Origin: Cloeon dipterum | Taxonomy: Eukaryota; Arthropoda; Insecta; Ephemeroptera; Baetidae | Assembly: GCF_949628265.1 (NCBI RefSeq) | Contig: NC_088786.1 | Location: forward strand, 26,061,681-26,125,680 | Direction: 5' to 3' | DNA: 64,000 bases | Shown: positions 12,385-42,628 of the stretch, in pieces | Position numbering within the stretch: position 1 is the first letter of the stretch | Layout of the letters: each line of letters starts with the position of its first letter | Notes under the pieces: model-generated | Databases searched by the model: none | Told to the model about the DNA's origin: nothing | Seen by the model: only the letters and a program-made list of their open reading frames with translations | Position numbers and translations under genes: made by a program

Positions 12385-15300
12385 ATGCCCTGGTGCTCGT
12401 TTCCGTCCACCTGTTCCAAATATGCGGCTCTATCTCGCAGCATGAAAGAAGCATATGACGAGGGGGTGAGTCTTATTATTACTGTGCCGAGACTCCCACA
12501 CGCAGGCAGCTCCCGGCGCGCGGCAGTGTTTTATCGCGGCTCGGCGTGTGAACCACGCCGGCCGCCGAACGCATCGCAGCTAACTTAGTTAAAGCTCGCC
12601 GTCTGCGCGGCTATTATTATTTTCTCTCTCGCCGCAGATTCGTTTGCGCGATTTACGAGCCAGCGAATGACGAGGCCCGCGACCTGAATGCTGATTCGCG
12701 CCGATCACGCCCTGGTCACATAGACGCTTATTATTATTGTGCGGCCGTGCTCGGTGGCGTCCGTGGGACCCTTGCCAGAATTCACTCCTGGCCACGATAC
12801 CATCGGAAAGGAGGTGCAAGGCGCGCGGCCAGTTTCTTTCTGAAGACGCAATTGAAAAGTAGTGCTTATTTTGTGCGTGCGTGATGAAAGCTTTGGGTTT
12901 GATGTCGTCCGTCTGACTTAATTCACTTAAAAACACACACTCAGGTTTTCCAAGATGAAGACCCTGACACCTGAAGAGGTAAATTGAAAATACTGAGCAA
13001 ATATTTTTTGATGTGAAAAAATTATATGTTTTCATTTAAATAATTTCAAATTAATTCAAGCCTATTTTCAACTAACAAAAAATTTAAAATTTTCTCCGTG
13101 TTCTAAATCTTCTCAACTACGATTACCATTAAATTTATCAGAGTGTTTTTGTGCCATGGAAACCAGTAAGTATTGTGAAATAAATTACAATTTACATACA
13201 GCTGCTCAGCTCGGCTCGATGCCATAATTGTGAATCACAATATTTTAGCATTTGTTCACTTTCCCACGTAAATTTATGTGCTACGAGCGCTCTGCTTGCG
13301 ATATAAAACGACGTCTCAAAATACATTTTACGAAATAAATGCGTTCAGGAAATAAAGATTGTAAAGCATTATATTCTTCTTTGTGATTTGCTGAAAATTT
13401 TTCTCTTGAAATAAATCATGCTTAATAATCACTGAAAAAATGACAACAAAACTAGCAGAAATAATTTACACGAAGAGTAATATCCATTAATCTCTTGCTG
13501 TACTGATTTTTTAACCAAAATATTTTAATATAATTATGTCAAGTTGAAGCTAATATTCCAATTCTACTCGTCGCGCGAGAATTTTCGGATAAAATTCCCC
13601 ATAAAGAAAGATTTTATCATATTTTTAAATTGTTTTCGGCATTTATATTTTTGTTTGGCATTTTGCATTCGTGGTTATTTCTTTTTGTAAATATGTCAAA
13701 ATTACTAGCAATGAAAGAGCATAATTATGTCCAAAAACTTAAAATAACAACTATAATGGCGATATTTTTTAAGCATAAACCAAATTGAAATTTATTTTAT
13801 CTGTGAGACGAGTTGCGATTTTCCACAACAGTCATTTAAATCAATGAATAGTTTTAAATTCCCTTTTGAAATAGATTGGTTGTTCATGAATTTCTGTATA
13901 TTCAACAAAAAATTTATAACTTGAACCATTAGGTAAATTTTACTGTTTTACAATATCGAAAATGAAAATTTCTTGCAGAAAATCGGTGACGTTGAGGGTT
14001 GGGTGCGCGTTTTCGCGGGGCCCGAGTGCTCCAAATCGTTAGCTGAGGACGACCACGGCACCCTGGTGTCCGTGCAGACGCTGACCACGAGCGGCGACAT
14101 CTGCAGACGCTTCCTCGGCATGTCTCCTGACGCGACCCTGTGGGCGCAGTACGGTGCGGGGCCCAGCTGGAGACTCACCTCGTCCGAGGCTCCGCTGCTG
14201 CTGCAGGAGCTTTTCCTGCGAGCGCTTGGATACGACGACCCAGAGCGCAGGAAACGCATGGGAATTGACCCTGAACTCAGGCACCTTCTCAGATTCCACA
14301 CGGGTAATGTGGAAAACTTTATAAGGAATTCCACTTGTGAAGAGAGAGATAAATTTATGTTAAATTCAAATTAATAAATTAACTTGATTTATTTCTTGGG
14401 GAATGCATGAAAAGTTGTTCATCTTTGTTTAATTAACAAATTAAAATTTTGTCTTTAACATCTTTTACAGGGCCTGCTGAGCCTCAGGGTCCCATGCCTT
14501 CGTTGCTTGGCTTTCCCAGAGCAGCTCGGTTATTCGTGTTGAAAGGTCTCGTGGTGCCTCGGTGGAGAAGACGCGCAATCGCCCTCCTCGGTTCGCGACT
14601 CCTCCTTTTCCCAGGTGAATATCATATGATTAATTCAGAGGACGGTGCTTGCTTCCTCTTATCCATTCATAAACTCGAGTTTGATTGCTGGCTATAATGC
14701 TCTGAACCGTGCTGGCAGTGCGCAATGAGGCCGAAAATTGTGCGTAGTTTCCGAGGCGTGCTTCCCCCTTTCACAGTGAGGGGGATGATAATTTTAACCG
14801 CTTCCGCTCTTTTCACCTCGCGTCACGTTTATCTCCTCGAGCACAGGACGCAAGATGTTTGCACAGGGTGAAAGATTGTGCCGCGGACGGATGCGTGCAT
14901 ATGGTGAGAAAAAACGGAAAGCACGACTTGAAACCACTCGAAACTTATTTGGTCACACAGCCGGAACACTTTTTATCTGACTGTGTGTTAGCTTCAAAAT
15001 TAGAACTAGTTTTTCTATATAATTAACAGTATTCATTTTAATAAATGATTCCATAGTAGGATTTAAAGAAAATGAGGTGGGTGAAAAACAAAGAAGTAGA
15101 AATACTTTGTTACGAGGTTGAATGAAGGAACAAACCCAATAAATTTTAAATGGGTTGATGAAATTTTTCCCATCCTGTCTATTTGTTTCGTTACCTTTTA
15201 CAAAAGTTTTATTTCACCATCAGAACAAATTGGCATTCCTTTTTGCGTCGTAAATATCCGTTCAAGGAGAAACCAAGCATAATTAATTATAAGGACGTGT

Positions 15301-18300
15301 GTGAGTTTACATAAAATTAAAATAAATAAACGACTTTTTTAATAAGTAAAAATTATATAATTAGGATTTATTAAACTGCAAAATTGAAAGACCAGCATTA
15401 AATACAGTGACACATATATACGATTTAGGTATTCTAATCGAGCGAGCAAAACCTAAACGTAAAATATGCAACTTGCGTTTCACCCACAACAAGCAATTGC
15501 CTACATTCAAACTTTGATGTTCATTTTATATCAACCGCTATTTTCTATCGGTTCTGTTTGCACTAAAATTTCGATCGAACCTCATTTATTGTCCTTAAAA
15601 AATTTTTCAAAAAGAGGACGACAAAAATAGGAAATTTCTTGTAATGTAAAACAGATGCTGGAGCGGATCCAGAATTGGAACTGGAGTTGACAGGCGGACG
15701 TGTGGAGGCGCAGGTGCCGCGGGGAGGGTGCCTAGTGCTCAGGGTCGTCCCCTGCGAGCAGGAGATTGGTACCAACAACCTCTCTGGAGCCGCGGCAAAC
15801 AACAAGGTCGCTGCCGGCAACAAGCAGCAGCAGCAGGCGCTCTTCCTTGGCTTCCAGGGCGAAACCGAGCGTGACCTGTGGCTGGCTTGGCTGACCAAGG
15901 TAATTATACCACAAGAATTTTTACAGAAGCACCATCATCGATCGCTTATCTAATAATTAACGCATAATGGGGTATGGGGTGTACTGTTATAGAAGAGTTA
16001 CTGATGCAAGAAATTTTCAACATTTTTTGGAACATTTTATAAAGAACAACCCAAAATGGTTTGTAAAAATTCTTTAAGTAATGCAATGGAAGATCAAGAC
16101 AGGAGGGAGATAAAAAAAATAGATTTGGGAGTTCTTAATTGTCATCCTAAATGTGCATAATTTGGTCATCTTTCGCCATCTGGTGAATCATCTTTTCCCC
16201 TTTCTTCTAAATATTTTAAAGAAATTATACCGTCCATATTTGACAATATCTTCAAAATCTTCTTTGTGGATAAAAATGAGTATCCTAAACTGGGTTTGCA
16301 AAAATCTGCATTTTCTGGAAACCCCCGACTGCATTGCAAAAAAATGGCGGGGTTTCCTGCAATGTTGGAAATATTCCGATGCACGTATGATTTTTAGTAA
16401 ATTTATGAATATTTCGTGATGGACAGCAAAAAAATAATTAAAAAAATCAACATGTGGTTAGGGAATTAAAAAAATCAACGGAGAAAATTACATTTAAAAG
16501 AATTTTCAGCCTCGCTGTCATATTTGGTTACAAAATAAAAACGCGGAAACCCCCGGATTGGAAGGGTTTTTTTTCTGGCCGGTGCTTTTTCCGCAAAATC
16601 CATTTGTGCATTTTAGCACATTTCAAAAATTGGCGAATCATGCATAGAGGAATAAAATGGCATTTGTATTGTTTTTATTCCCGCTAGCATTTATAAACAA
16701 CTGTCAAAATGAGATTGTTTCACAGCAAATCCATAGTTGGAAAAACGCATTAATTTTTTGTTTAATTTTTAATTACTATTGTTTATCTAAATAAAAACAT
16801 CTCAATAATATTTTTCGCATGGTAAAAACAACCGTGAAACTCGAATCAGCGGTCAAAAGGCGTCTCGGACACTCCCAAGGAAAGCTGTTAACACTTAATT
16901 TTTTCATTTCGTGGCAACAAAGCTGCCGTTGTTAGACAACAATGGTTCCTCGCCTCGTGATTGCTACTTCCCTCTCGTTATGAGTCGTCCGCTGGCAGAT
17001 AATGAAGCGTGTGTGCACGGCGCGCGGTAGACATGCCGCGGTGAGCACGGAAAAGACAGCCAAGCCAGACAGTGCGGCTGCTGGGGATGAATGCACTGCC
17101 TTGCATAAAATAAATGTAAATAACGCACGCGATGCACGCTCGCTCCTCACACTAAACTTGGCCATTGGTCGGAGAGCCGCGCGGGCCGACTCGAGCGTGA
17201 CACTAGTTTATTTTTCGAGGCCCATCATCCAACGCACGGCGACCGGGGGAAGCGAGCGAGCGAGCTAGCAAGCAGCACCAACCAACTTCCTCTCGCGCGT
17301 GCTCGCGCACCGGAGCAGAAGAGAGTTCTCTCGCGGGTGACTCAATTCAATTTGGACGAGTCGCCGTCGTGACTTGGTGCTCGTAAGTGCGCTTGGGGCT
17401 CATGCTCCCGTGTTGTTTCGCCTCTTGGGTGTTTCCCGTGTGTCCCACGATGTGCTGTTGAAACAAACCGAAGGGTTGCGTCCATTCCATTGGTTCGGTG
17501 CCAGCGAGATATGGAGATGGATTCTTTGGAGGTGCACGTCGTCGACACCTTCGACGAGGAGGAAGAAGAGGAAGAAGACACCTCACGCTACAACGACGAT
17601 GTGATATATATTTTTATTTAAAATTTTTGTATTCTTTCTATCAAATTTAGAGAAAAGTTAAAAATTTAGACCGGAATTCGCTGTGGATGGAAAGCTAGCG
17701 TAATCCTCCCTAATCCGAATGAATTCGTCGTTGCAACGCAAGAGAATCAAATGAAGGCGCAAATCTGCCCGCACTCAACCCCAAATATTGCTCGGATTCT
17801 CCCATAGGAACTGTAATGCGAGCCAATGGCTTGGTTAGAAAATTAAAGAACAAAAACAATATATGTAAAAATAAGATTACCAGAAGGGATTTATTTTTTT
17901 GTTTCCTCAGGGCATACGAGTTTTGAAAAATCAATTTTAAAAGAGATTTTTTATGGCAATCGTTTTAAAATCGAATTTTATAGCTATCATAAGATCAATT
18001 ATGATGAGCTTTTAATTGGTAGCCTGTATTTGACGAGACGAATCAACCCATGCTGCCAAGTATGAAGAAATTGTTCCTATATAATGGATTATGGCTGAAA
18101 AAATCTCAATCAGATCATTAATTTAGCTTTATGAATTTCCTGATGAAATACAAACATATCAAATTTCATTTTTAGCTTGTACAATGTGTGCAGTTTTCAC
18201 ATTTACAATAAGTTTTACAAAACCTGATGGACAAATTTTGGATTTTTTAAAAAATATTTTCGAAAAATCTATTCATCTTATCAATTATCTAACAAAATTA

Positions 18301-21300
18301 ATTAAAATACAATATTCACAAATTTCTCGTAATTAGGGGCTTCCCATCTGAGAAAAAGAAAAATGACAATTTTTTTAAAGATGTTGACTTATTTGCAACC
18401 CTAATTGAGGCTCTGTAAATCACTAATAATTTTTAAACTGAAAAGTTTTAACCACTTCAATTTGAGTTCATGCCAGAGGCTACACGAATCCAATCAGATC
18501 GCTAAAGTTAGTAGAGCTCTTAAGAGTTTGCTTGTTCTTAAAATTAGGTTATTTATGGGAAATGTGGATTTTCTACTGAAAAATAGATGTATTCATAAAT
18601 GCACGATTTATGAGGTGTAAAACGTAACTTTAAATCGATGCTACCGTTGAATTTACAGTAAGAAAACGTCTATAATTTCGAGAGAACATGTTCAATTATT
18701 ACTCTATATCAATTTGTGTATCGTTATCTTGGCAAGACGTTCCAGATGAGATAACTTTTATCCTCCAGCCACTTAGCAAGCAGAAGAAAGGCAGGCTAAA
18801 GGAATTAATTAAATATTTCGGTTGCAAAATCAATTATTATAAAGAAATGTTAGAAACAATGCAATTAGACAGAGTTGGATGATGTTAGGTAATTTGCCGG
18901 ACATGACGTTGAAATATCATAAGATTTTCGAAACGCTCTATTGTTTCACTCAGGCCGCGATGCTATATGAGAGAAAGGCATAAGTAATTTACATGATTTT
19001 TCTCTTCACGCCCGGTTTGTCATCCGAATCGAAAAATCCTCTCGCTTGTTCGCTCGCTCACATTTGAATGAGTGCCTTTTGCGTGTGCAGGCGTGCGACC
19101 CGCAGCAGCAGCAGCAGCAACAGCAGGATCTGTCTGCCGAGGACATCTCTCCGCAGGATTTGACCGCAGAGTCGCGTTTGTGCCTCGCCCGCAGCGGCCT
19201 CCGCAGCCTGCCGGCGCAGCTGCTCTGCGGACCGCGGCTCACGGTGCTCGACATCAGGGATAACCTGCTCACCGAACTGCCCAATGACATTTGGAGGCTC
19301 AAAGGGTGAGTTTCTCTCTGCATTTTCGCATGAAACTTTTAAACCTTTATTTGAACAATTGAAACCCATGGAAAATAAAATTCATACCAGTTACTGTTGC
19401 TTTAAAAACGAATCTGCGTGAAGCTCCTGGAGAGTGCTAAAAATGGTATAAAGTTGTGTATCTGCGTTTTGAACAAAATGAACGTTAAAAATATTTGTGA
19501 ATTTAAAAATGTTAAATATTTAATAATTATTCATTTAACGCTTATTTTGTCACATGTATATATTTTATTATCAATCAAAATTGCCTTGACAAACAAGTAG
19601 TGCTGATGATCGTTCTTGATTTTTGCTCGCCCTTTTGCTCTGGCTAATTCACGCATCCTCTTCCAATTATTTCTGCTTAATGCACAACAATTAAGCGAGC
19701 GTGTAGGAAAATGCCACCGTCGCGTCTCCATGAAAGGCATCCGCTTCGCTTTCAAAGTTTTGCCTCACCTGTTCTGAAGGTCGCGCCCCTAATTCATATT
19801 TTCCTTCTGCTTAAACATGCTGTTCACTCATTGTGTGCCGAGAGTGTTAGGTTATTTGATACAGTTCATGGTTCTCGGCGACGCGCTGCCATTGCCCAAC
19901 ACAATTACGAGTTTCTTTCGCAGCCCACTTTCGCTCGACAAATTAAACTATAGCCGCACACAATTACTTCTATTGGCTTGAATTTTTTTGCTAAACGGTT
20001 AAGTAAAATGCATTTTTTTCTATTTGAAATTAAAAGAATACACTTTTTTCTTGCAACCGATCAAATTCATCTGTGTTTTTCGTATCAGCAAAAAGATACG
20101 CCAATTTGATCCGTGTATTGTCTCGTGTCAAGATCGCACTCTACTCCTTTCAGCATACGAAATCGAGCACAGGGCTACTGACTATTAACAGTTGGCGTCC
20201 AAAAATGCTGTGCATGTGGAATAAATGATATCCGCTGTGCACAGTCAGTGCACACCATAATAGTGGCCTCAGCTGTATTTTTTCATTTCGACTAGCAGAG
20301 AAAGCACAATAAAAGCGGATGAATTAATTATGAGGCTTTTTAGAATTACTCTAGCGTCAGTACAACAATCGCTTTAATTGCAACTCCAGCGACTGTGAAC
20401 TTGGCGAAAATGCTTATCGCCTGCGATCTTTTTTAAGCTCTGTTTTGGCTTTGGCCGTCAATCTTTATTATGATTTCGAAAAATGACTTTTCAGTTTGCA
20501 AGAAATGCGATTGGATAGAAACGCCCTGCGGGAATTGCCAGATGGCCTGGTGCAGCTGCACGATTTGCACACCCTTTCGGCTGCGCAAAACCGGATCACC
20601 ACCCTTCCAGCCGGACTCTTGGGCCACATGGAAGCGCTCAGATCACTCGTGAGTGAGAGAAAGCACACTTTATGCGTCAGTGGATGCAGAAAATGCCTTC
20701 ATATACGTATTATTTCCATCGTTTCGCAAGAAAGGAAATTCAAATAAGTACAGCGTGAAATTTTTGACAGGTCTATTTTACATCTATTATTCGTAATAGA
20801 GAAACTCAATTATAGCGATAGTTTTTTTCTGGTGGTAAACAGTCTGATAGCTTGATTTTTCGATTCAAATAATTTAAAAACATTTTATTCTCCAAATTAA
20901 TTTAAATTTGTTCGTTAGTCACATAAATTTTGTGGTTTTAAAACCCAACGAATTACTCTTGATCTTAATTCAAAATTTGTTTATTTTATTTCAAATAATG
21001 TTTGTTTTTATTTTTTATTCGTAGCTAAATATAAAAAATGTTTCGGGTGATAGCAAATTTTATTTGGATTGATGCAGAAACTTTATGAATATTGGTGTAA
21101 AAGTAACACCAAGTCCTGTTGACCTATTGCAAAATTTTTTTATTTGAGTAAGCTTACACCCATTCGTGCAACCACATAAGCACATCGAATATTTTAACGC
21201 ACGACACTGTAACGCGTTGTGATTAACAATTTACTATTCTCTCTCAAAATTTAAATCCGTGGAAAAGTTTTGGGCTGTTAAAGCACTAACAAACTTTAAA

Positions 21301-24300
21301 AATTGTTTCACCACCTCAGACGCCTGTATAATTGTCCAGTCAGCTGTCACTGAAAATCGTGGAAAAGCCAGCAACCGACTTAATAATCTCGCGGCTTGGA
21401 CCTCAATAAAAACATATTAAGGCCCAACAAGAGAAATCGATATTGTGAAAATATACTTTGATTTAAAAATTACCCTAGTAGCTCAAAATAATTTATGTGC
21501 GTATTTAAACTTTTTCCCAACAGACTCTCAACAGCAATTTGCTTGAAGCCGCCGCTGTGAGTGCAGCGGCCCAAAAGCCCATCCGCGAAAATGGCCATGC
21601 GAATGAAGGGGATGGAGTAGAATCGTTGGGGCCCCTCAGTCACGTCGATCTGAGGGGCAACTCGCTGTGCGGCTCGATTGTTTTGGCGGACTATGGAGTA
21701 TGTCATTATTTGTATTTTTCTCTTTTATTTTGAGCTTATGTCGGACCTTTTAAAGGCGTTGACCTCTCTAGACGTAAGTTTCAACAAAGTACAAAGCCTG
21801 GACTTGGCTGCCCTGGAGCAACTGCGGCGGTTGCATTGTGCCAGCAATGAGTTGCGGCACTTGGCTCTTAGCGGCAGGAGCTTGGAAGTGTTGGTTGCGC
21901 CAAATAACAGTGAGCTTTATTTAGAATGAGTGTGATTGTTAATTTTAACTGAATATTGCAATTGTGATAGAATTGCAGATGGTTCAAGTCGAGCCGCCAC
22001 CATCAAGACTGCAAGAGCTTGATCTTTCAAGGTGAGGATAATTATAATTTAAAATCACAAAACACTCGGGAATTTATTTGCAAAGTTTCTTAAAAATGAA
22101 GATGGTCATCAGTGAGAGTGAGAACCGCTTGCAAGCACGACGAATGTTTTTATTTCTAATTTAATAAAGAAAACGAAACGTTGCAGAAACGAGCTGACGA
22201 TGATGCCGTCATGGTTAGTTGAGTGCCGCGGCTTATCTAGCATTGATGTCTCTCACAACCAACTTACATCACTGCCAGAAGTCGTGTTTCTCTTGCCGCA
22301 TTTGCACACGATGCAGGTACGTACAAAAATGAAAGTCGCGACTTCACTTGTTTTTTTAATACCGATTTCACGCCTCTTTGCAGGCAGGGCACAATTCCCT
22401 ACGGAGTCTGCCCACGATTCAGAACGCAAATCTTTCCCTGCAAATTCTGCGCCTCCAGAGCAATGCTCTCACTGCTCTTCCTCCGCACCTGCTCAACTGT
22501 TGCAATAGGTAAATTTGATCGTCTAATTTAGAGAAATAATTCGAAAAGGTTGAATAATTGCGGCTTCCAGGTTAGTTGAGCTGAACTTAAGTAGCAACAG
22601 ACTGATGGTGATTTTCGACGACACTGGCAGCCAGTTGAAAGCTCTCCGCCGCCTGATGGCCTCCTACAACCAACTCGGCGACGCTGCGCTCCGTCAAATC
22701 GCGCGTTTGCCCAATCTGAAAGCTCTTCACCTGGCTTATAACAGAATCACGCAAATCCCTGCCATGTACGCATAACAATCACCGATCGTAATCTTCTGTA
22801 AAATACACGTGCTTTCTATTTTCCCAGATGCATCGATTCTTGGTCAGAGATTCAGGAATTGGTGCTCTCCGGCAATCACTTGATCTCGCTGCCAGAGAGC
22901 ATTACGAGCTTGAGGAAGCTGCAAGTTCTGCGCATGCACTCGAATCAAATAAGGAGTTGTCCTACCGTGAATCAAATGCTTTCGCTTAAGGTACGCGATT
23001 TTTGAATCTCATTTGGGGGCATGAAGTGCTAACGAAATTTATTTACCAGGTTTTAGATTTATCGCACAACAAATTGGAACAAATAGATCTGGCCCGCTTG
23101 GCTCCACCAGGTCTGCAATGCCTCGATATCAGCTGCAACCACAGACTCCACGTCGATCCTAGCCACTTCAATCAGTACAGGTGCGGAGATTTATTTTTTA
23201 ATTATTTGTTGGTCTCAGTGGTCGATTAAAAACTTTTATATAGGTCGAAACGCGCTATGAGTTTGGTAGACACGAGCGGCCAAAACAGGAGCTGCCTCCC
23301 AATGTCCCCGTACCACGAGGCCGCTGCCCTCGAGCTTCCCTGGACACTAGGGTTTGCAGACGGAGGCGCCTGGTCTAGGTCCGAAATTAAATAACTCTCA
23401 AATCGCAAGGGATACAAACTGTCACGCTTCATAGATTTCCAATATGCCAACTGCGCCTGCCAGCCTTCTGCAACACAGAAGCTCTGCTAGGAATTTTTGA
23501 AGGGAGTGGCGCGTCCGGGCCGGAAGTTGCGAAACTGCTGGCACAATCCGTGCCCAGGCTGCTGTTGGAAGAGAGGACCCTGCCCGATACAGCGCACGAA
23601 TACATGAAGTACACGATTCTGTCGGCCCACAGGTGAGTGAGGCAGTCGTGCAAAGCAGGTTGCATAATACGTCCAACGGGCAGGCGCTGATACCGTCCCA
23701 TATTTTCAAATTTAATTTAATTTTTCCTTCCTTTATACACAATTTTCCGGCACGTCATTATTATTATTTACATTAAATTTAGAGGTCTCAGCCGTGAGAT
23801 TTAAGGCGGCTGCGGGACCAGCGTAGTCGAATTTTTTGTGGTGCTGGTGCGGCTGACAATAGTTTTAACGTGAAGTTTAATAGTGCTTAACGGCACAAAG
23901 GGCCAGGAGACATTATTTTTTCCTGCATTTTTTAAATTTTTGACCCATTTTCACCGGCGGCTGGCGCAGCTTAGCCAGATTCACGGCGGCTGCCCACGTG
24001 ACTCAAAATTTTCTGGCTGGCGCGGCTGGCTGAGACTTCTATTTCAATTATATTTCAGAGAGTTGCGTCAAAAGGGCCAGCTGAGCGGTGCAAACGCGGT
24101 CATGTGCCACATCTCGCGGCCGTCGCCTGCCAAGCCGTACATCTTGCGGGTGGCAAGCGTCGGCCCGCAGGGCGTACTCCTCGCCCGAATCGGCGGCTCG
24201 TGCGCGCGCCTTACCAAGTCGGCGCCTCACTCGGAGCCAAACAGGGTGCTTGGCCAGTCGGCCGAATTTCCACTCGTCATTCCTGACCCCTTCGTCACCG

Positions 24301-25564
24301 AGGTCATCCTCGGAGAGACCGATCAGTTTATCATCGGCGCCTCTGAGAGGTCGGTGATCGCTTTTTTTCGTTCCGAGATGGTGGCTTATTTTATGTTTTG
24401 ATAAAAAGGTTTTGGGAGTATGTGCCAGAAGAAGAGGCAGTCCGAGAAGTGGCAGCTTCGCTTGGAACTTCTCGCGGCAGCAAAGAGGCTAACACTGCCG
24501 CCAAAAGATTGGTGGACCTGGCCCAAGGTTACGGCTGCACCAACTCGATCAGCGTGATGGTTTTGAGTTTGCTCGGTGAGGGTCTCAGACCATCAAGCCA
24601 AAGCGTCAGAGTAAGTTAATAGTTAAAATTTGTCTCATTAATATACTGTATTTAGAATTCATTCTCTTTCAAAACATAATGTTTCTTGTTCTTCTCTATT
24701 CTAAAACGTAATAGTTTTTTTATCGTTTCTCCTTGGTAGATTTGCTGACTGATCCCTCTCCTTTTTTTAAAATTAAAACGCAGGTTGTTACTCCAGGCGA
24801 AGCATTCCTAGCCCAAGCGAGATCATCGCCGAGCGGTCAGAGTGCAGAGGACGACCCTCATTTGGAGCACCTAAGCAGTGCAAGCAGTTCACACAGGTTT
24901 GCAATTCTAGTGCTTACCTTAATAATACTAAAAAGTGAACCTGAACGGTTTTAAGTTTGAGCATATTTTTTTAGTTTTTTGTCAATCTCCAATCAAGATG
25001 CACTTCATAAGGCAATTTAATATTCATCTTGCTAGCGTGCCCTTGTCGAGATTCGCCACGCTGCCAGGATTTTCTGACATGGGCGGAGACGCCGAGGACG
25101 AGTGGACAGACACAGGATCTTGCGCGGCAACCTCCGCAGGACCGGAGCAGCTCAGGTGCTGGGAATACATGCTGGAGAAAAACAGCCGGGTGCTCTTCGA
25201 CAGAGACTTGCAGGCCCTGCGGCCCACTCTACCAAGGGTGGGGAAAGGCGGATCGGACATTTCAAGCGTAAGGCTCATTTTGACGCACACGAGGAGAAAA
25301 CTAATTGAAGTCCATTTTTCATAGCTGAAAGGATCTCTGCGCAACAGGGTGATGTATACCGGCCACAACGCCGCGTACTTTGGCTCATTGCAACGCCTAC
25401 TGCCAACGTTGACGAAGGAAACGGCAAGAAAGTCACCTGGGTTTATAAGAGCCCCTTCAGCCGAGATGCTGCAGTATGTGCCAGAGGAGGACTTTGGGGA
25501 GATGGACCCTTTGCAGTGCGGCAGAATGCAGCGATATTGGGGGGTTGCCACGACTGAACTGTGA
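12385..25564 (+). CDS. Phlpp: PHLPP: PH domain leucine-rich repeat protein phosphatase
   Basis: In other animals PHLPP dephosphorylates AGC kinases such as Akt and PKC. Exons: 12385-12465, 13979-14303, 14471-14614, 15655-15899, 19091-19305, 20495-20648, 21524-21697, 21756-21909, 21971-22031, 22187-22316, 22384-22508, 22571-22765, 22828-22990, 23050-23180, 23244-23378, 23435-23632, 24059-24349, 24409-24610, 24784-24896, 25036-25267, 25325-25564; in frame, about 1,235 residues. Domains: Ras-association-like N terminus (28-135), PH domain (about 145-265, ending DLWLAWLTK), polyQ (near 270), LRRs (about 290-765), PP2C-like domain (about 770-1040), and a low-complexity tail. The first exon is chosen because its ATG frame and strong GTGAGT donor match phase 0; Met at 12442 is an alternative start. 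Three PP2C metal-ligand positions are substituted (Glu833, Glu977, Asn1019), so activity is uncertain. The donor at 23379 (GTCCGA) is weak. Confidence 0.88.
12466..13978 (+). other. PHLPP intron 1
   Basis: This is the intron between the candidate first exon and the Ras-association-like exon. Its first 550 bp are CpG-richer and contain open frames on both strands, including a 148-codon one on the minus strand at 12589-13035 that has no family signature. The rest is AT-rich and without signal. Confidence 0.5.
16317..16358. repeat. Small GC-core inverted repeat in PHLPP intron 4
   Basis: GGAAACCCCCG at 16317 is mirrored by CGGGGTTTCC about 20 bp further on, giving a 10-bp stem. The same GGAAACCCCCG word recurs near 16548. 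The surrounding 400 bp are unusual for this AT-rich intron and may be a decayed short element. It is noncoding. Confidence 0.35.
17511..17600 (+). CDS. Candidate alternative first exon of PHLPP
   Basis: An ATG at 17511 opens 30 codons starting MEMDSLEVHVVDTF and continuing into a run of seven acidic residues. The frame ends exactly at a GT (GAT|GTGATA) in phase 0, which matches the phase-0 acceptor of the LRR exon at 19091. Splicing would give a PHLPP without the Ras-association-like and PH regions. The donor is only moderate and no transcript evidence is available, so this is an inference from phase and the surrounding CpG-rich DNA. Confidence 0.3.
19103..19128 (+). repeat. CAG/CAA microsatellite encoding polyglutamine in PHLPP
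   Basis: A CAG-rich run with one CAA encodes eight glutamines at the start of the first LRR exon. It lies just after the splice junction with the PH exon. Length polymorphism between alleles is plausible. Confidence 0.8.
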
Positions 25565-26072: not shown

Positions 26073-29000
26073 TTATTCGAAAAACCTAACCTTCTCTGGT
26101 CCATCCTTAAAAGCTTGCAGCAGGGTGTTGCTTGGGAGGGTCATGGACCTAGGCGGCTCATCTGTCTCTTCTTCAATTTTATCCTTGACGACAGCAATAG
26201 GAATCTGGTACTGATGGTCTAGCCCCATGTAACAGTTGGAAATAATGTAGAGTGAAAGGATGCCAAGACACGCCTTTTGAGGGGTGTTAAACTCAATGGT
26301 GGTCTTCCTGTCAGATGCAGAAATCCTGTAATGTTAATTTATATTTGCATGAGGAACAAAGACCAACTTAAAAGCATCACTCAACCTTTTCAGTCCGAGC
26401 AGTGTTCCTGGCTTTGCTCCATCCACATCATTCATTCCAAGAACCAAAAACCAGCCAACGTCCTTTTTGCGAGGGAAATCAGGTGCGTAAGCATAGACGA
26501 CTCTCGGCGTTCCTCGCGGACACAAACTGATGACGTATGTTTGGCCCGCAGTCAGTTGGATGTAACTGTTGCAAGGCAGCATCACAGGGATGCAGGCTTG
26601 TCTCGACTGCGACTCTCGGTTGTATCCAGTGATTGTAAGCCGGATGGAAGGAACAGGCAGGGTCTTCAGCACCTGCTGGTACTAAAAAGAATTTTGTTAT
26701 CATGAGATTTAACCGCCCACTCTTGCTAAAACTTACAATTGCCACATCCTCCTCTCGTAGGCAACTCTTCAAGACTTTCTTCAAACCGTCCGCCTGTTGT
26801 GAGCCCTTGACACATAGCGTTGGCAAATCAGGGGCGAAGTTAACCGCGATCTCTCGGAAGAGCTGCTCATTCATGAACGGCATCTGCCACAGGGGATCAC
26901 TTTCTGGCCACTTGGCTTGAATTACGCACTGCAGCACCATCTGGATGGTGAGGGTGGTGCTAAGAAGAGCTTTCTCGGCACTCACGTCCATCATGGCTTG
27001 CAAAATACGGATGCATTGGTCTAGCACTGATTTCAGGTCAGTGTTGTAGTCGGCAGAAGGCAGCTGCAAGTGCAGCAAGTAAGACTGAATGAGGATGTTT
27101 GTCTTCAAATGGGGGTCGTCCAGCTCGCCTTCTACCTTGACGCGGACAAGCTTATTAAGTTCCCTGTAAGCAACAATAATTTATAATTAATATAAAAACG
27201 AATAGAGTTACATTGAGTTTATCTTATTTTTAAAAGTCTGACAGAAAGTTTTGTATCATGTCGGGTGTACAGAAAAATAGACTAAAAGTAGAGCAGTACC
27301 TTCTGAACTGCCATAAGGGCACAAACCAACAATACATTGTTTATGTCTGACCAAAAAGGATTTTATTTCACGTGTCAGACAGCATTTGTGTACTCTCATA
27401 TTGCCCAAAAGAAAACAGAGCGATTCAGACAAAAAACCTGTCACGCATTTTGGCGATAGAGGAAAATCATGCTAACGAAAAGCAAAATTTCACACCCATT
27501 AATGTTGTCTTCATTGTGCCGAACGGGCAACTCATCATATTCGGTGGCACTACTAAGCAGCTGGATGATTTCATAGGGTGTGCAATCGGGGTGAAGCCTG
27601 GTGTCAAAAAGGGCAATGGTTTTGTGACTTATGTAGTAGTAGGACGAGATTCGGCCAAGGGAAGTGGATATGATACCACGACCATCCTCAGCAACTGTGA
27701 CGCAACCAGTATTCACCAGCTCGTTCAAAGTTTTCTCGATGAGACCGGAGAGGAAATTGTTGATTTCACTTGCTTCAACTGAAGCCAGTCCATAGAATGT
27801 GGGGTTCTTTAACAGTCTGCGGAAGAAGAATGTCCACGTCAAGTAGTCCATTGCGTCCTGCTTGCTCTGAATTGTGCCAGCAACAATCTATGATGAATGA
27901 TGGATGAGGTTTGTCAAAAAGTAGAACACAACAAAAATCTTACTTCTGCATTTAAGTGATCTGGCAGAACTGCCAGCAGTTTTGACTCAACAGGGAATGG
28001 TTCGTGTAGGAATCTTTTGTAGAAAGCTTTCTTGATATCATGCACCAATAAAACTGCCACAGCTTGGTGATCGTACTGTGGCCGACCAGCTCGTCCAATC
28101 ATCTGGAGAACATCCGTGATAGGCATGTCCTCGTAGCGCTTTTTCTTTCCGTCAAAGTATTCTGTGCCTTTCACAACTACCAAATGGGCAGGGAAGTTGA
28201 CACCCCACGCAAGAGTTGCAGTAGTGACCAGAACCTGACGGTGAACGCGTAAATGCATATAACAATTAAAGATTATCAGCACAAACCATGATTTTTCTGT
28301 TGACAAAAAGTTCCTCGATAATATTTCTGTCTCTGTCTGGCAAACCTGCGTGATGGATTCCAATCCCAAATGGAATGAGAAGTTTTAAATTAGGATCTGT
28401 CAGTGAGTCAACAATGTTGTAAGCATCTTCCTCTGACATTCCTAGCCAATCCTTTGAATTATCAGGATCAGACGCTTGACACTGGAGAAGGGCCATAGCT
28501 GTCAATCGTGTTTGCCGGCGAGAGGCGACAAAAACCAAAGCCGGTTGGTTTGGAGAATGAGTTTTGATGGCCTAAAATAGAGCAAATTTACTGCGCAAAG
28601 TTTTCAAGAAAGTTCTAAACAATTTTTAAACTGTGATAAAAAGAAATAAAAAATATAAGTTCTCTTCCTTGCCCTCGCTCGTTGCTCATTAGCTCTTGAG
28701 AGATTGTGATAAGAAATTCTCACCTGGAAGGTTGGCTTGTTCATGGTGGCCATTCTTGGGCAGAAGTGTTTACCAGGGAATCCAGAGATATGAATCTGAA
28801 CAGGCACAGGTCGTACACTGGGTCTGAAGTTGTATAAACCTCTCTGAGTGCTAATGCCAAGCCAAGCTGCCAAATCGTCTATAAGTTTAGATTAAATATT
28901 ATGTTTGCTGTGGATCAATACGGTAACTTAACCCCAATCATTCCAACATACAAAAGAAAACAATAAGAAAAAAATAATACCAACTTAAAGTCATCCAACA

Positions 29001-32000
29001 TGAAAACCGTTCACTCTATTAAAAGCGCTGTCAAGCAAGAATGGGCTCGTCAAATTTAACTCGGACTAACCTGCATTAGCGAGGGCAGTGGAAAGACCAA
29101 CGACTCTGCAGTTGGTTGCGCCTCCTTGGGAGTGAGCCGCGATGTAGCTCGCTCTTGACACAATCACCTCCAATACAGGACCACGATCTTCACCAAGTAG
29201 GTGAATTTCGTCAATGATGAGCAATGAAACCTGTCTAACGTAATTCCTCGTTTGCCAGCTTCGGCTCACACCGTCCCATTTTTCTGGCGTTGTCACCTGG
29301 CATGCGCAATTACGCGATTTATTTCATTTTCAAAGTTAATGATCAATTTAACAAACCACAACGTCCGCAGAGGCGATAGCAGCCGCATCAGGACTTGAAT
29401 CCCCAGTCAGCTCAATTACTTTCTTCCCGAGTTTCTTCACAAACTTTTCATTCCAGTCCTTGATTCTCTCTCGGACCAAGGCCTTCAAGGGAGCTATGTA
29501 CACGATCTACAAAGCAAGAAATGAAAGTCATGGCTAGACGTTAAAATTGTTACCTTGGTCCCAGGATGTTCTCTGAAAACGCGGAAGATAGCGAGCTCCG
29601 CTACAACAGTTTTGCCGGAGCCAGTGGCAGCTCCAAGAACTACATTTTCATCAGTGTGGTATAGACAGTGGAAAACTTGGGTTTGGATCGCATTGAATGC
29701 AAGAATGTTGTCGCCAAATAAACTCTCCAGCTTAGGGTCGTTCAGAGCGCTGATAGGCAGTGGGTCCAAATCCAAAAGATCTGTTACAATGTATTTTGAA
29801 ATTGACATATTTTGCTTTAAGAGTAGAATCATTACTTAGAGAGAGGATTTAAATTGAAAGAGTGCCATACCTGTATGTGCAGAGTAGCCATCTGGGAAGG
29901 TGACGTCTTTGAAACTGAAAGATTGTGAGTAGTCTGCGTTAAGCCAACGGTCGCTCACAACTCTCACAATGCAAGTGTGGGAAGAGTAGTTGGTCTCTTG
30001 CAAATTGAGTGGGATCATGATGGTAGTTTTGATTGGTTCTTGAAATCGCACCTGTTTAATTTCACAAGAAAAAAATGAATGGGATATTGGAGAAATGGTT
30101 AGAATACTAACTTGTTTCTTGTTGATGAGGATTGATTCATAGTGATGAATTCTGCTTGTTGTGCAATCTTCAATCCACAGCCAGAAAATTTCAGCAGTCT
30201 TGTGAATGCGGTCACACCACCTAATAAATTGTTGTAAAAATGCATGAAAATAACAAACGTTGGTTAATTACTTGAATTTTGGCGTGATGGTCGCTGTAAT
30301 TTTTACAACTGTGGCTGTGATAGGCTGGACAACAGTATCAATGACAACTGTCGGGAATGCCTCAACATGATACTTCAGTTCTGGCCCCAGTCTTGTATTC
30401 CTCACCATGGCACCTGGGATTCAACAATTATTGTTACATTTCTAGCTGGCACTGCAGCAAAATTATGTGACGTACCAATATCAGATGCAGACATATCCCT
30501 CATTCTGTCCAGAGTCAGGTGGCTCTTCTTCAACTTTTCCAGCACATCCATTCCAAATCTATCCATTTGCGCTAAAGGGTGTTCAGTGTCCCACAGCTGT
30601 TTTTCCATCATCTTGGCAATCTTCAAAGTACGGTTGGACAAAATCGCATCGCCATGCTTCAGAGCCAAGTCAAACAAAGCCCTTGCAATTCTTGCTGCAT
30701 TCTATTCAAAACCTTCAAATTTAGCAAATTTAACTATGAGAACTTAGCACACTCACGTCTGTCACATAGCATTTGTCAGAAATCAGAGAGAACGACTTGA
30801 TGAATCCTTTGGAAAGGTGAGCCTGTAAAAGAACGTTCACCTTTCCATGAATGTTGTCTGGTCCACCTTTGACTGGAAGATAGCAGTAGTTTTCATAAAG
30901 TTCATCAAGCTCATCCATTTCTTCATCTCGAAGCTGCACAGAGGGAAAAATGTTAAAAAAACATACAAAACACCCAGCAAAATTTACCTTGAGCTGCTCA
31001 AATTCTTGAGCATGTGACATCACAGTCAAAATATCAGCATCACTCAACGCATTCATATTATTGTCGCTCCCTGCATTCATTTCCTCGACAAACATTTGCA
31101 TTGTGTCATATTTGATGTAGAAATAACTGGCTGTTCTGCCAATATCTGATGAGACAGTTCAGTATCGATAGATTTGTTAAGAAAATATTATTTACCTGTG
31201 GCATCCAAACTTCCTGTAGGATGATGGAATCGCACCATTCGAGCTTGCTGGAGCTTGTCAGCGCATAGGACTATCAATTCATTGCACCTTTCATTTAGCT
31301 CAGGATCATCCTAATCATAAGTTTTTAACAAAAAGCCTCAAATAAAAAATAATTTACCTTCAGCATCTGAACTGTAGCTCCATAGCACAACGGGTTCTTC
31401 CTCATGCGCACATAGAGATAGGTGTACTTGAGCCACTCAATCGCGTCTTGGACATTTGAGATTGTTCCCAAAACGATCTAAGTTTCACAACTTAATTTAA
31501 ACCACAGAAAATACTACAAAGTTACCTCTGCATTGAGATTATCCGCAAGGCAATTGATAAACTGGCTTTCAATTGGATACTGATTTGTCAAGAGTGACAA
31601 GTAATGGTTCAACTTTTCGTGTGACGTGATGATGCATCCGTGGCCCGACTTGTCAAACTGAGGGCGACCAGCTCGGCCGAAAATTTGCAGAACGTCTAAA
31701 ATGCCCAAGTCGACAAAGGATCCGTGCTTGGCATCGTAGATTTCAGTGCCTTTGATGATGACGGCATGCGCAGGCAAGTTTACACCCCACGCCAAGGTTG
31801 CCGTGCACACCAAAACTGAAATAATCATTTTTACAAAGATGCAAAAATTTCAATCCGAAAATGAACATAGCATTTATTTATAAGAGCTGCTGAAAACGGA
31901 ATAAATAAATACACACAATGTAAATTAATGAATTTTAAACGTTCAAGAATTATACCATCCTATTTACCTGAAATGTATCCTTCAGCAAAGTATTGCTCGA

Positions 32001-34909
32001 CCAGATTCCTGTCTTTCCTCAGCATTCCAGCATGGTGAACTCCAAATCCGTTGGGCATGAGTTCAGCAAGTTGCTTGTTTTGCAGTTTGCCTGACGCCCG
32101 GAGAGCCTGGCCCTGCAAGGACCCCGACTTAGGCTCAAAAGACGCCGTTTTCCCATTCATCTGGGCCTTGTTTAGCAGCATTTGAGCCGTGCGGACAGTG
32201 GCATTCCGTGCGTGCACGAATACCATCACTTGGTGACCCTTTTCAACCATTTCTAACACCTTGTCATAGCAGACGTCATCCATGTCGTTCATTTGCTGGA
32301 GAGCTTTGCGCGCCTTGATTCCAACAAAAGACATACTGAGGGGCACAGGCCTGAATCTGTGGTCAAAGTAGAATAGGCCTTTGTACAGATTGACTCGCAA
32401 GAACTGCGCAACGTCCAAGTAGTTTGGTAGTGTAGCTGACAAACCGACAATGCGGACCATTCTTTGGGTTGTCTCAACCTGAATTTGCAAAATTTTAGCG
32501 TCAACTAATATATTGCATAGAAAAGTCTTTACCATGCGCAAGGTACGAGCTACGATGGCCTCAAGGACAGGACCTCGATCACCATGAAGAAGGTGAACTT
32601 CGTCAATGATAATCAACCTCACTATCTCAGTGAGTTCCACATCTGAGCTAGGGTTGGCCTTTCTCGAGACCACATCCCACTTTTCAGGCGTGGTTACCAA
32701 CATCTGGGTCTCTTCCATCTCTTTCTTTGTCAGGTTCATGTCACCAGTTAACTCTCGCACTTGCATTCCAAATGCAGACAGCCGCTTTTGAAAGCTTCTA
32801 GCCATTTCAGCCGCCAAGGCTTTCATTGGCGCAATATACACAATCTGCGGAAAATTTTGGAAATTATTTTTTGCCCCACTTGACACGGATTGCAGCAAAC
32901 CTTAAATTTCCTCAAATCGATCTTGCCATTAATATAATACTGTTTGACCACGTTCATCACTGTGAGCAAAGCGACATTGGTCTTTCCAGCACCAGTGGGG
33001 GCACAAATCAAAAGGTTCTCATTGGAATTGTAAGCGGTTTCAAATACAACACTTTGGATTCTGTTAAGCGATTCAATTCCAGCAAATGCAGCTTGGCCCA
33101 ATTCATCTAGATAGGAAATTTTGACCCGATCCTCACCAACAGTTAATGGAGCTGGTTTCGAAATTGGTATGTCAACTTGCTCATATTCTTTAGTGTCCTT
33201 CCTTGTCACGTTTTCAGGGAGCAACATTTTCATATTTGAAATGAAGCCTAAATTGAAATAGTTAATAAGTTTCAAGAGTAAAATTAATGCTTCATTAAAT
33301 TCTTTCACCTGCCGATTGACGTATTTCATTTTGACTATCATAGACATTGGGCAAATCCATCCAGGCTGGCCTGTTGGGCAACACCACTTTCTTTGGGCCA
33401 AAGAGTCCCTTTTTCTGGACAGCGGTTAACTGCGCGATTCTTGCTGCACGCAATTTCTCTGGATCGAACAGCTCCTCATCGTCGGAATCAGAGTCAGCTG
33501 CATTCTTCAGAGCAGCCTTTGTCATCTTTTTCTCCTCTTTGCGGATTTGCTTCATCAATAGTACCTCATCCTCCCTCTGGACTGTCACTTGACAAGCAAG
33601 CTGGGGTCCTCGGGGTGCAGAATCTGCTGACAATGAGTTATTTTTTGGAATTATCTTCCAACCAAATATTACATTTAGGTTCTCTAAGAGGCTTGTTCTT
33701 CTTTTCCGGGGCAGCTTCGAACAGAGCTGCATTCTTCAGGTCTTCATTGATCAAAGTCCTTTTCTCAAGCAGAACCTGAGCCAGCTCTATCTTCTCATAT
33801 CCCAGCATGTCCAAGAGCTTTAGGAAGACTGTATAGAAGGAAAATGTACTAACTTTAAAGTAATACTTCCTCCTGTAGTTCATCATTGCTACGGTGCGAC
33901 CTTAGCATTTCAGCAAGAGAGTTGGCCACTTCAGCGCTTGGCAAACCCCCCATGAAGTCTTTTCCACACCAGCACTCCACTTGTTCAATCATCCAATGCA
34001 TGCCATACTGATATATATTTTTTCATGTGAAATTTAATTGAATTTCATTTAAAAATCGTGGCCCTACATTTTGGCGCTGCTCTATTGCCGAAGTTTTGTA
34101 CTGCATAGAAAAGTTGTCTACTACTTGAATGGTCTGCCTTTTAACAGTCATATCGAGCAACCTGCTAAAATCTGGAATTGGCCAAGGCTCTGGAGGAGAC
34201 ACTTTGATGTTGTTGCCAAAGGTGGACGTGTTTTCCTTTATCTTGAAAAAGGAGCCATCGCAGATTTCTTTCAGTTGATCCACGTGTTCCGAGCTCAAGT
34301 TTGCTATTACATCTTTTACAGTCTGCAAACCAAGTTTACGTATGTATATTTTGTACTATGCAACTATTTCAAATTAAATATTAAACCTGAAATGCTTTCT
34401 TCGCTTGCGCAGGAGTTATTTGACCAAATGAGAGAGACAACGACTTCTGCAAACTTACAGTCAACACTTCTTGACCAACTAAGATCTGCAAAATCATAAT
34501 CACAGACTCTTCCAACAAATCATCACCGCTCTCAGGTCCTAAAATTATATCAGATTTTTATGTTAACAAAAAGAACAATTTTAATTTGAAAAAAAAAATC
34601 CAAGTCGTATACTTGCCAACAATATCTTTAGCGACATCTTTAAGCTTTTGTAGTGTTTTAATGGAATCTGGAGATAATTTTTTCAGAAATTTCTGCAGCT
34701 CTCGCTGCGTTAAACTGAAATATATTTTGGTGAGATTAAAATTACATTTGGGGCTTTAAGGAAATGATATACGTCTTTCGCCTGTTTTCTTTCCATGTTC
34801 TTCGAGCCTGAAGAGCCTGCGAAAGATCGGTTTCGGGCACAACAGGTCCCAGTTGCGCAAAGGTCCGCAAATATCTTGAAAAACTTGGTTTTTCGTATGT
34901 TGGTGCCAT
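26073..34909 (-). CDS. ASCC3: ASCC3, activating signal cointegrator 1 complex helicase
   Basis: Ski2-like 3'-5' helicase of the ASCC complex, which in other animals acts in alkylation repair and in splitting collided ribosomes. Twenty-nine exons give about 2,210 residues (human 2,202): 34773-34909, 34617-34714, 34387-34538, 34068-34322, 33867-34007, 33673-33817, 33309-33623, 32901-33247, 32533-32844, 31968-32478, 31526-31815, 31358-31477, 31196-31310, 30988-31145, 30757-30933, 30476-30701, 30272-30413, 30112-30220, 29871-30051, 29554-29780, 29357-29506, 29071-29296, 28724-28878, 28287-28571, 27944-28234, 27496-27887, 26737-27163, 26386-26681, 26073-26325. Cassette 1 has Walker A APTGAGKT (about 497-504), DEVH (611-614) and a Sec63 domain. 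Cassette 2 has AATGSGKT (1361-1368), DEIH (1465-1468) and a second Sec63 domain. Both motor cores look intact. Intron 2 appears to be GC-AG. Brr2 was considered, but the motifs and C terminus follow ASCC3. Confidence 0.93.
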
Positions 34910-41274: not shown

Positions 41275-42628
41275 TTAAACATGTAAATTCAACCTTTTGC
41301 TTTTCGATGACCCAGGGAAACAACACTTTTTCTCATGTGACGGTATCTGCGACCATTCATAAAGCGAGTACCCAAGGAGAGCCAAAAAGAGGTGACGCAC
41401 TATCGCAATGGACAAAATTACAGCCACTATGAAGCTGTAAGCACCTCCAACAAAGCAAAGTGCAATACTGTAAAATAAAAAGGGTCAACTTAATCGCCAT
41501 TATCAAAATTTAGGAGCATGACTCACTAAAAGTCGTAAAATACATCACTGCAGTCATCAGGGACTAGAATGGAGTCCATCAAGAGGAAGGGGTGGCAGGC
41601 AGTAGTCAACACTAAGTACGAGTACAGGAACAACGCGCATGTAGTCAACACACTTCCAGTCAAGAATTTCCGCACGTTTTTACTACCAATGCAACAGTCA
41701 AGCCTACAACATGAAAACTTAGGAATTTTGTTGCTTCTATTGAACTATTCGACAGCTCACCAATAACAGTGGTAGTCAGCTCTCAGCACACAGTGATCAC
41801 AAATGCTGCAGTGCATTGTGTCCTGTGGACACTTGATCCTGCAAACCTTGCAGGCTTGGTTGCTTCCTTCTTCGTCACCCATCGCTTGGGTAGAGGTGAA
41901 TCGGGCGGCGCACAGAAGTGAAATACCCAACATCAGAAGAACAATGAATACAAAGTTCTCAGATGGAAGGATTTCTAGGCGGGGGATTACGATGAACTCA
42001 AATATAAGGAGCAAACTTATAGCTGAGGTCACCGACCAGGAGAGGAAAAATTTGGATCTAGGATTTATTTCGCCGTAAAATTTCTTGGCGTAAAAAATAA
42101 TGAAAGGGATGAGAAGGAATGTGATGAATGTACACCACACATTCACTGATGCAACTAAAGCAAACAGTGGAAGCAAAACTGTGGGAAGGACAACGTCTAA
42201 AGGGACAGTCTTTGCTCCACCGCGCCATGGGATACGACATCTGTCTTGAATCACGCGGTACATGTTCAAGTGTATGTCAGCAGGCATAGATCTCCCCGTC
42301 ATAGTTCTGTAAAAAATTATAATTTTTTAGTGCTTTACATTGCAATGCGCGCTGAGCTAGAAATTTACTAGGTCTCGCACACATTTTCTTGCAAATAGGT
42401 GGCTTATGTATCCAATTCTTAAATAATATAAACCTGTACTACAATTATAATTAAATATGTATTTACCACTAAATAATACACAACCTACCGATCAAAATAT
42501 TCGTCAACATGTTCGCAATCACATAAACACCCAAGCAAGTGACTCCTTTGATTTTTCAAATTAACATATTCACAGCAGCATAAAAAATTGTTGCTGTCGT
42601 CCTCTTCAATGATAAAATATTGGTTCAT
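41275..42628 (-). CDS. ZDHHC23: ZDHHC23-like palmitoyltransferase with DYHC motif
   Basis: Membrane S-acyltransferase family protein, about 351 residues in four exons: 42489-42628, 41761-42306, 41527-41703, 41275-41467. The N terminus carries the cysteine-rich element CCCEYVNLKNQRSHLLGCLC, which matches the start of vertebrate ZDHHC23. Several hydrophobic segments follow, then the cysteine-rich domain (CKVCRIKCPQDTMHCSICDHC) and the active site. That site reads RADYHCYW: the catalytic cysteine (Cys227) and Asp224 are present, but the first histidine of DHHC is tyrosine (Tyr225). Two further membrane helices and a basic tail (SKSKRLNLHV) end the protein. The start is the ATG just before the cysteine element. 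The exon begins at an acceptor, so a 5' UTR exon lies upstream. Confidence 0.8.

What the first reader, a model, noticed from the sequence alone, without database searches (positions are those of the whole stretch)
23435..24610. PHLPP with all three recognisable PP2C metal-ligand aspartates replaced
In PHLPP of other animals the phosphatase domain has Asp in FDG, Asp in GLWD and Asp in GCxDS. Here these read GIFEG (Glu833, 23499-23501), FWEY (Glu977, 24416-24418) and GCTNS (Asn1019, 24542-24544). The rest of the domain and the LRR/PH scaffold are well kept. Conservative but complete replacement suggests a pseudophosphatase or changed metal use, with the scaffold role retained. The first sits in an exon with a weak upstream donor, but the reading frame there is supported by LRLPAFCNTEAL.
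Basis: partly seen in the sequence, partly recalled or inferred. Interest (0 to 1): 0.7.

Follow-up and report, generated by a model that had tools for sequence, protein, structure and literature searches.

The report
PHLPP pseudophosphatase with eroded metal site
The phosphatase domain of this animal's PHLPP gene lacks the residues that usually hold metal; since animal PHLPPs are already argued to have lost phosphatase activity, this looks like a further-eroded version of a known pseudoenzyme rather than a surprise.

Summary
They lie in an intact 21-exon PHLPP gene (1216 aa in my model), with no second copy found in the held assembly. 'All three Asp replaced' is wrong for one: PHLPP2 itself has Glu989 at the FWE position. 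The other two match Asp820 and Asp1024, two of four proposed ligands of the one zinc ion in human PHLPP2. In the favoured alignment the other two are gone as well (Cys799 to Pro794, Asp822 to Ser816), so 0 of 4 remain; 1 of 4 if nearby Cys796 serves.

The pseudophosphatase reading is probably right but not special: PMC12002173 found purified human PHLPP2 inactive and places the loss in the metazoan ancestor. The residue is modest: a PHLPP that apparently also lost the chordate zinc site and most of FLAP. No other invertebrate PHLPP was available, so whether this is unique or clade-wide is open. Human sequences in the alignments were recalled; PHLPP2 agreed with eight published positions.

The parts
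12955..25564 (+). PHLPP gene, 21 coding exons, 1216 aa plus stop TGA 25562-25564; N-terminus provisional
   Evidence: exon joins keep frame over 20 of 20 introns, placed by hand at GT-AG sites, no internal stop; PF23010 'PHLPP protein RA domain' E 3.9e-15, LRR_8 E 2.6e-42, PP2C E 2.1e-12
13979..14303 (+). exon 2, RA domain
   Evidence: PF23010, protein 18-115; the one match in the held genome, C1:26075686-26075979
14471..15899 (+). exons 3-4 (14471-14614, 15655-15899), probable PH domain
   Evidence: position in the gene; PF00169 E 0.045, 14.7 bits, below cut-off 25.1; no PDB match by sequence at E up to 10
19091..23180 (+). exons 5-14, leucine-rich repeats
   Evidence: LRR_8, nine stretches
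23244..23378 (+). exon 15, LRR-PP2C junction and start of PP2C
   Evidence: frame and GT-AG
23435..23632 (+). exon 16, N-terminal part of PP2C; holds Pro794, Cys796, Glu814, Ser816
23439..23441 (+). Pro794, aligned with zinc ligand Cys799 of human PHLPP2 (alternative: Cys796, 23445-23447)
   Evidence: 111 of 120 alignments give Pro794, 9 of 120 give Cys796
23499..23501 (+). Glu814 (GAA), aligned with Asp820 of PHLPP2 (PPM1A Asp60, recalled)
   Evidence: 120 of 120 alignments
23505..23507 (+). Ser816 (AGT), aligned with Asp822 of PHLPP2
   Evidence: 90 of 120 alignments; Ala818 in the other 30
24059..24349 (+). exon 17, middle of PP2C with shortened FLAP region; ends at Glu954 and the first two bases of Arg955
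   Evidence: 8 residues between anchors against 34 and 33 in recalled human PHLPP2 and PHLPP1
24345..24347 (+). Glu954 (GAG), at the first Asp of DGIWD in PPM1A/B; Lys in recalled human PHLPP1/2
   Evidence: PDB alignments; 120 of 120 alignments to recalled PHLPP
24409..24610 (+). exon 18, C-terminal part of PP2C
24416..24418 (+). Glu958 (GAG), equals Glu989 of PHLPP2; not a replacement relative to PHLPP2
   Evidence: for Glu989
24542..24544 (+). Asn1000 (AAC), aligned with Asp1024 of PHLPP2 (PPM1A Asp282, recalled)
   Evidence: 120 of 120 alignments; PDB alignments put it at the Asp of RDN in PPM1A/B
25550..25561 (+). C-terminal TTEL, a possible PDZ ligand (human PHLPP: DTxL)
   Evidence: human motif in PMC13358185

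Best explanation
This is the animal's one PHLPP found in the held assembly, an intact gene whose PP2C domain is catalytically dead, as shown for human PHLPP2 and argued for animal PHLPPs in general. In this lineage the vestigial site has decayed further: the four residues proposed to hold the one zinc ion in human PHLPP2 read Pro, Glu, Ser and Asn, and most of the FLAP insertion is missing. The protein most likely works as a non-catalytic scaffold, with the PP2C fold packed on the LRR/RA cradle, a diverged PH domain for membranes, and a C-terminal T-x-L PDZ ligand. Shown: intact frame, no second copy found, the residues, the shorter FLAP region. Inferred: no activity, no zinc, the scaffold role.
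For: 21 exons join in frame over 20 introns at GT-AG sites. PHLPP RA domain, LRR and PP2C score above Pfam cut-offs. One RA_3 match in the genome; the PP2C domain gives four matches at E up to 1, all in this gene. Mapping of Glu814, Glu954, Glu958 and Asn1000 is the same in 120 of 120 alignments. Of eight own-genome PP2C loci scanned by motif patterns, four showed motifs, all canonical: VFDGHA (L004) with DGVWD and GSRDNMS (L001), and VFDGHG, DGLWD, GSLDNIT (L005, overlapping L007); the other four showed none, which says nothing. Two of the eight (L001, L003) show a 35-36 residue H.P-to-RxxG stretch over FLAP. Human PHLPP2: no activity, one zinc, ligands C799/D820/D822/D1024, active site lost in metazoans (PMC12002173). 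That group's intended dead control was D1024N, and Asn is what this gene carries.
Against: No structure model, transcript or assay. Three Glu residues (814, 954, 958) at aligned acidic positions leave possible ligands. Cys796 could stand in for Cys799 by a two-residue shift (9 of 120 alignments), which would leave 1 of 4 ligands. PH is weak, and TTEL lacks the acid at -3 of human DTxL. The human sequences aligned were recalled, not fetched; the PHLPP1 one is unchecked.
Confidence: 0.8

Rival explanations
1. Remodelled metal centre: Glu at the aligned Asp60, Asp239 and Asp243 positions of PPM1A, with Asn at Asp282, forms a new site that binds another metal and may keep some activity.
For: Glu814, Glu954 and Glu958 lie at those aligned positions (PPM1A numbers recalled). 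Recalled human PHLPPs have Lys at the Asp239 position, so Glu954 adds an acid there.
Against: The Cys799 position is Pro (or a shifted Cys) and the Asp822 position is Ser; by eye the M3 Asp146 position (recalled) reads Pro. PMC13358185 states that mutation of any metal-coordinating residue is sufficient to abrogate PP2C activity.
Confidence: 0.06
2. Ordinary invertebrate PHLPP: the same residues and short FLAP occur widely in its clade, so nothing is special to this animal. Compatible with the best explanation; it concerns only how special the case is.
For: PMC12002173 claims invariance of the zinc ligands only for chordates and says metazoan PHLPP lost its active site.
Against: Not tested: no other invertebrate PHLPP was on hand. 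The two papers describe FLAP as highly conserved across vertebrates and found in all kingdoms of life.
Confidence: 0.5
3. Gene-model or assembly artefact hides a canonical exon.
For: Intron 15 has a weak donor; no transcript data; exons were placed by hand.
Against: tblastn of recalled human PP2C segments finds the called exons, and elsewhere in the window only E 1.5 or worse; the window's own PP2C gives one further weak hit, E 0.069 at 25346-25540 in the last PHLPP exon. A motif scan of the three + frames over 22991-24800 finds no FDG at all and no W[DE] or GCx[DN]S other than FWE and GCTNS. The two substitutions lie in different exons, and FLAP is short inside one continuous exon.
Confidence: 0.05
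4. Decaying pseudogene.
For: Loss of functional residues.
Against: No stop or frameshift in 1216 codons; RA and LRR domains score well; C-terminal T-x-L present.
Confidence: 0.03

Closest known systems
Human PHLPP2 (and PHLPP1), PMC12002173
   Same: RA-PH-LRR-PP2C order, PP2C reported inactive (PHLPP2), Glu at position 989 (PHLPP2), C-terminal T-x-L PDZ ligand
   Different: Human keeps C799/D820/D822/D1024 with one zinc ion and 33-34 residues in the FLAP stretch (recalled sequence); here Pro/Glu/Ser/Asn and 8 residues
TAB1, PP2C-family pseudophosphatase
   Same: PP2C fold with an incomplete metal site and a non-catalytic role (PMC12002173, PMC13358185)
   Different: TAB1 holds one Mn in the M2 site and uses its FLAP to bind XIAP; no LRR (recalled)
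Amoebozoan LRR-PP2C (Stenamoeba), PMC12002173
   Same: LRR-PP2C architecture
   Different: It encodes the full active site and has measured, chelator-sensitive, okadaic-acid-insensitive activity
Fungal Cyr1, PMC12002173
   Same: RA-LRR-PP2C with PP2C catalytic residues lost
   Different: Carries an adenylate cyclase domain; the PH domain was gained on the PHLPP side

Membership tests
PHLPP family | PHLPP-type RA domain | tested here: met
   PF23010 56.4 bits, cut-off 27
PHLPP family | PH domain | tested here: inconclusive
   PF00169 14.7 bits, below cut-off 25.1; no PDB match
PHLPP family | LRR array before PP2C | tested here: met
   LRR_8 nine stretches, E 2.6e-42
PHLPP family | PP2C domain after the LRRs | tested here: met
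   PF00481 47.7 bits in the whole protein, 54.7 bits for the domain alone, cut-off 20.3
PHLPP family | C-terminal PDZ ligand (DTxL in human) | tested here: inconclusive
   TTEL: Thr at -2 and Leu at 0 as in human, acid at -3 absent; binding not tested
PHLPP family (chordate type) | zinc ligands C799, D820, D822, D1024 | tested here: not met
   favoured alignment 0 of 4: Pro794, Glu814, Ser816, Asn1000; 1 of 4 if Cys796 is counted; human sequence recalled
PHLPP family (chordate type) | full FLAP insertion | tested here: not met
   8 residues against 34 and 33 between anchors
Active PP2C phosphatases | Asp ligands of M1/M2 (DG, DGxWD, RDN) | tested here: not met
   Glu814, Glu954 and Asn1000
Active PP2C phosphatases | metal-dependent activity | not testable with these tools
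   needs purified protein

The most novel reading that the evidence does not exclude
A natural PHLPP that dispenses with both the zinc site and the FLAP surface while the rest of the gene stays intact. PHLPP's conserved function in animals would then rest on the LRR/RA cradle, membrane binding and the PDZ ligand rather than on the pseudo-active site or FLAP, contrary to the proposal in PMC12002173 that FLAP most likely mediates its interactions.
Probability: 0.35. Interest if true: 0.45.

Novelty: new variant of a known kind. Interest (0 to 1): 0.3.

Why it matters
Whether PHLPP is an Akt phosphatase or a pseudoenzyme is a live dispute (PMC12002173, PMC13358185). An orthologue that naturally carries Asn at the Asp1024 position, no recognisable zinc site and little FLAP is a ready-made test: if it does in its host what other PHLPPs do, neither catalysis, zinc nor FLAP is needed.

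Tried and rejected
A second PHLPP that might keep activity: none found in the held assembly. A hidden canonical exon: none found. Splice alternatives round the weak donor: one, with the same residues from PICQLRL on. The idea that FWE is a replacement: rejected because PHLPP2 has Glu989. PDB sequence search aligned only the C-terminal half of PP2C in the alignments shown, so the N-terminal mapping rests on the PHLPP alignment. TTAGG x5 in the genome: none; the animal was not identified. PH fragment against PDB: no match. No structure prediction was run: single-sequence quality would probably be poor, and the tool takes proteins that the window DNA gives letter for letter, which a spliced protein may not meet. 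Figures and supplements of PMC12002173 could not be seen, so its invertebrate residues were not seen. Sierecki and Newton 2014 (D806, E989, D1024) is recalled, not read; Glu989 and Asp1024 appear in a passage of PMC4633887.

Full report
Gene. The finding sits in an intact PHLPP gene on the + strand, 12955-25564, 21 coding exons, 1216 aa. I placed the exons by hand from open frames and GT-AG sites; over 20 introns the phases agree and there is no internal stop. Pfam gives the PHLPP-specific RA domain (PF23010, E 3.9e-15), LRRs (LRR_8, E 2.6e-42) and PP2C (E 2.1e-12) on the full protein. PH is only a weak match (E 0.045, under cut-off). The held genome (190 Mb, 10 contigs, possibly incomplete) has one RA_3 match, this gene, and the PP2C domain gives four matches at E up to 1, all in this gene. 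The animal was not identified.

Observation. The three codons are as reported: Glu814 (reader 833), Glu958 (977), Asn1000 (1019). The donor of intron 15 is weak, but the one other in-frame splice found keeps everything from PICQLRL onward, so Glu814 stands.

Comparison. PHLPP2 carries Glu989 and Asp1024 (one passage of PMC4633887 on a docking model; species not named there). Human PHLPP2's proposed zinc ligands are C799, D820, D822 and D1024, which PMC12002173 calls invariant in chordate PHLPP1 and PHLPP2 (section read). Over 120 pairwise alignments (4 matrices, 5 gap openings, 3 gap extensions, 2 human segments), Asp820 maps to Glu814, Lys985 to Glu954, Glu989 to Glu958 and Asp1024 to Asn1000 in 120 of 120; Cys799 maps to Pro794 in 111 and to Cys796 in 9; Asp822 maps to Ser816 in 90 and to Ala818 in 30. 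In the favoured alignment 0 of 4 proposed ligands remain, 1 of 4 if Cys796 is counted.

FLAP. Between the LSK/LTK and RxLG anchors the window protein has 8 residues against 34 (recalled PHLPP2) and 33 (recalled PHLPP1). This lies inside one continuous exon (24059-24349), so splicing is unlikely to hide it. That this stretch is the FLAP is my placement from recalled PPM1A topology; the papers give it as an insertion of about 50 residues between strands beta7 and beta8. In the same genome, 2 of 8 PP2C loci scanned (L001, L003) show a 35-36 residue H.P-to-RxxG stretch there (anchors differ from those used for PHLPP); the other six gave no pattern match. PMC12002173 and PMC13358185 describe FLAP as one of two highly conserved PHLPP surfaces in vertebrates, and the former proposes that it most likely mediates interactions.

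Control. Among eight PP2C loci of the own genome scanned with strict motif patterns, four showed motifs and four (L002, L003, L006, L008) showed none, which is uninformative because exons are scattered. The four are two places (L001 with L004 about 2 kb apart; L005 overlapping L007). Both keep DGH, DGxWD and the Asp of xDN. The PDB alignments put Glu954 at the first Asp of DGIWD, Glu958 at the Asp after Trp, and Asn1000 at the Asp of RDN in PPM1A/B.

Interpretation. PMC12002173 (abstract, sections 6, 7, 10, 11, 15 and found passages read; [quoted passage not shown] it did not test PHLPP1. PMC13358185 (section 4 and found passages read) argues the same for PHLPP at large. A dead PP2C in an animal PHLPP is therefore expected. 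The present gene goes further: it naturally has Asn where that group put Asn for a dead control (D1024N; the mutant showed the same low activity as wild type, which they trace to contaminating PP2A), lacks the zinc ligand set in the favoured alignment and has little FLAP, yet keeps an open frame and a C-terminal TTEL that resembles the human DTxL PDZ ligand without its acid. The most likely role is a non-catalytic scaffold; this is inference.

Limits. No invertebrate orthologue was on hand, so lineage-specific erosion cannot be told from a clade-wide state. Five paper searches listed no study that I recognised as describing invertebrate PHLPP zinc-site or FLAP loss; they cover an open-licence library, and I saw 20 of 24, 20 of 95, 1 of 1, 3 of 3 and 20 of 33 hits. 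No structure model, transcript or assay was available.

Noticed in passing
window 17500-17620 (+), in PHLPP intron 4: An ATG-initiated open stretch (MEMDSLEVHVVDTFDEEEEEEEDTSRYNDD) follows a C+G-rich-looking stretch; it could be an alternative first exon of PHLPP or a separate small gene.
   Followed up: no
window 19103-19126 (+): A short poly-glutamine tract (eight Gln) at the start of the LRR part of PHLPP.
   Followed up: no
window 27444-27887 and 31963-32901 (-): Open frames of a Ski2-like helicase, perhaps ASCC3 or SNRNP200/Brr2 (Pfam SNRNP200_wHTH and Sec63 in the first, DEAD in the second).
   Followed up: partly
window 41760-42326 (-): Open frame with a DHHC palmitoyltransferase match.
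   Followed up: partly
window 55479-55826 (-): Dynein heavy chain motor match (Pfam AAA_6). Neighbouring minus-strand frames may belong to it, but the two others of that stretch that were scanned (47770-48216, 60325-60741) had no Pfam match.
   Followed up: partly
own genome G000: No exact TTAGG x5 repeat in 190 Mb; this would be unusual for an arthropod if telomeres are assembled, but the animal is not identified.
   Followed up: no
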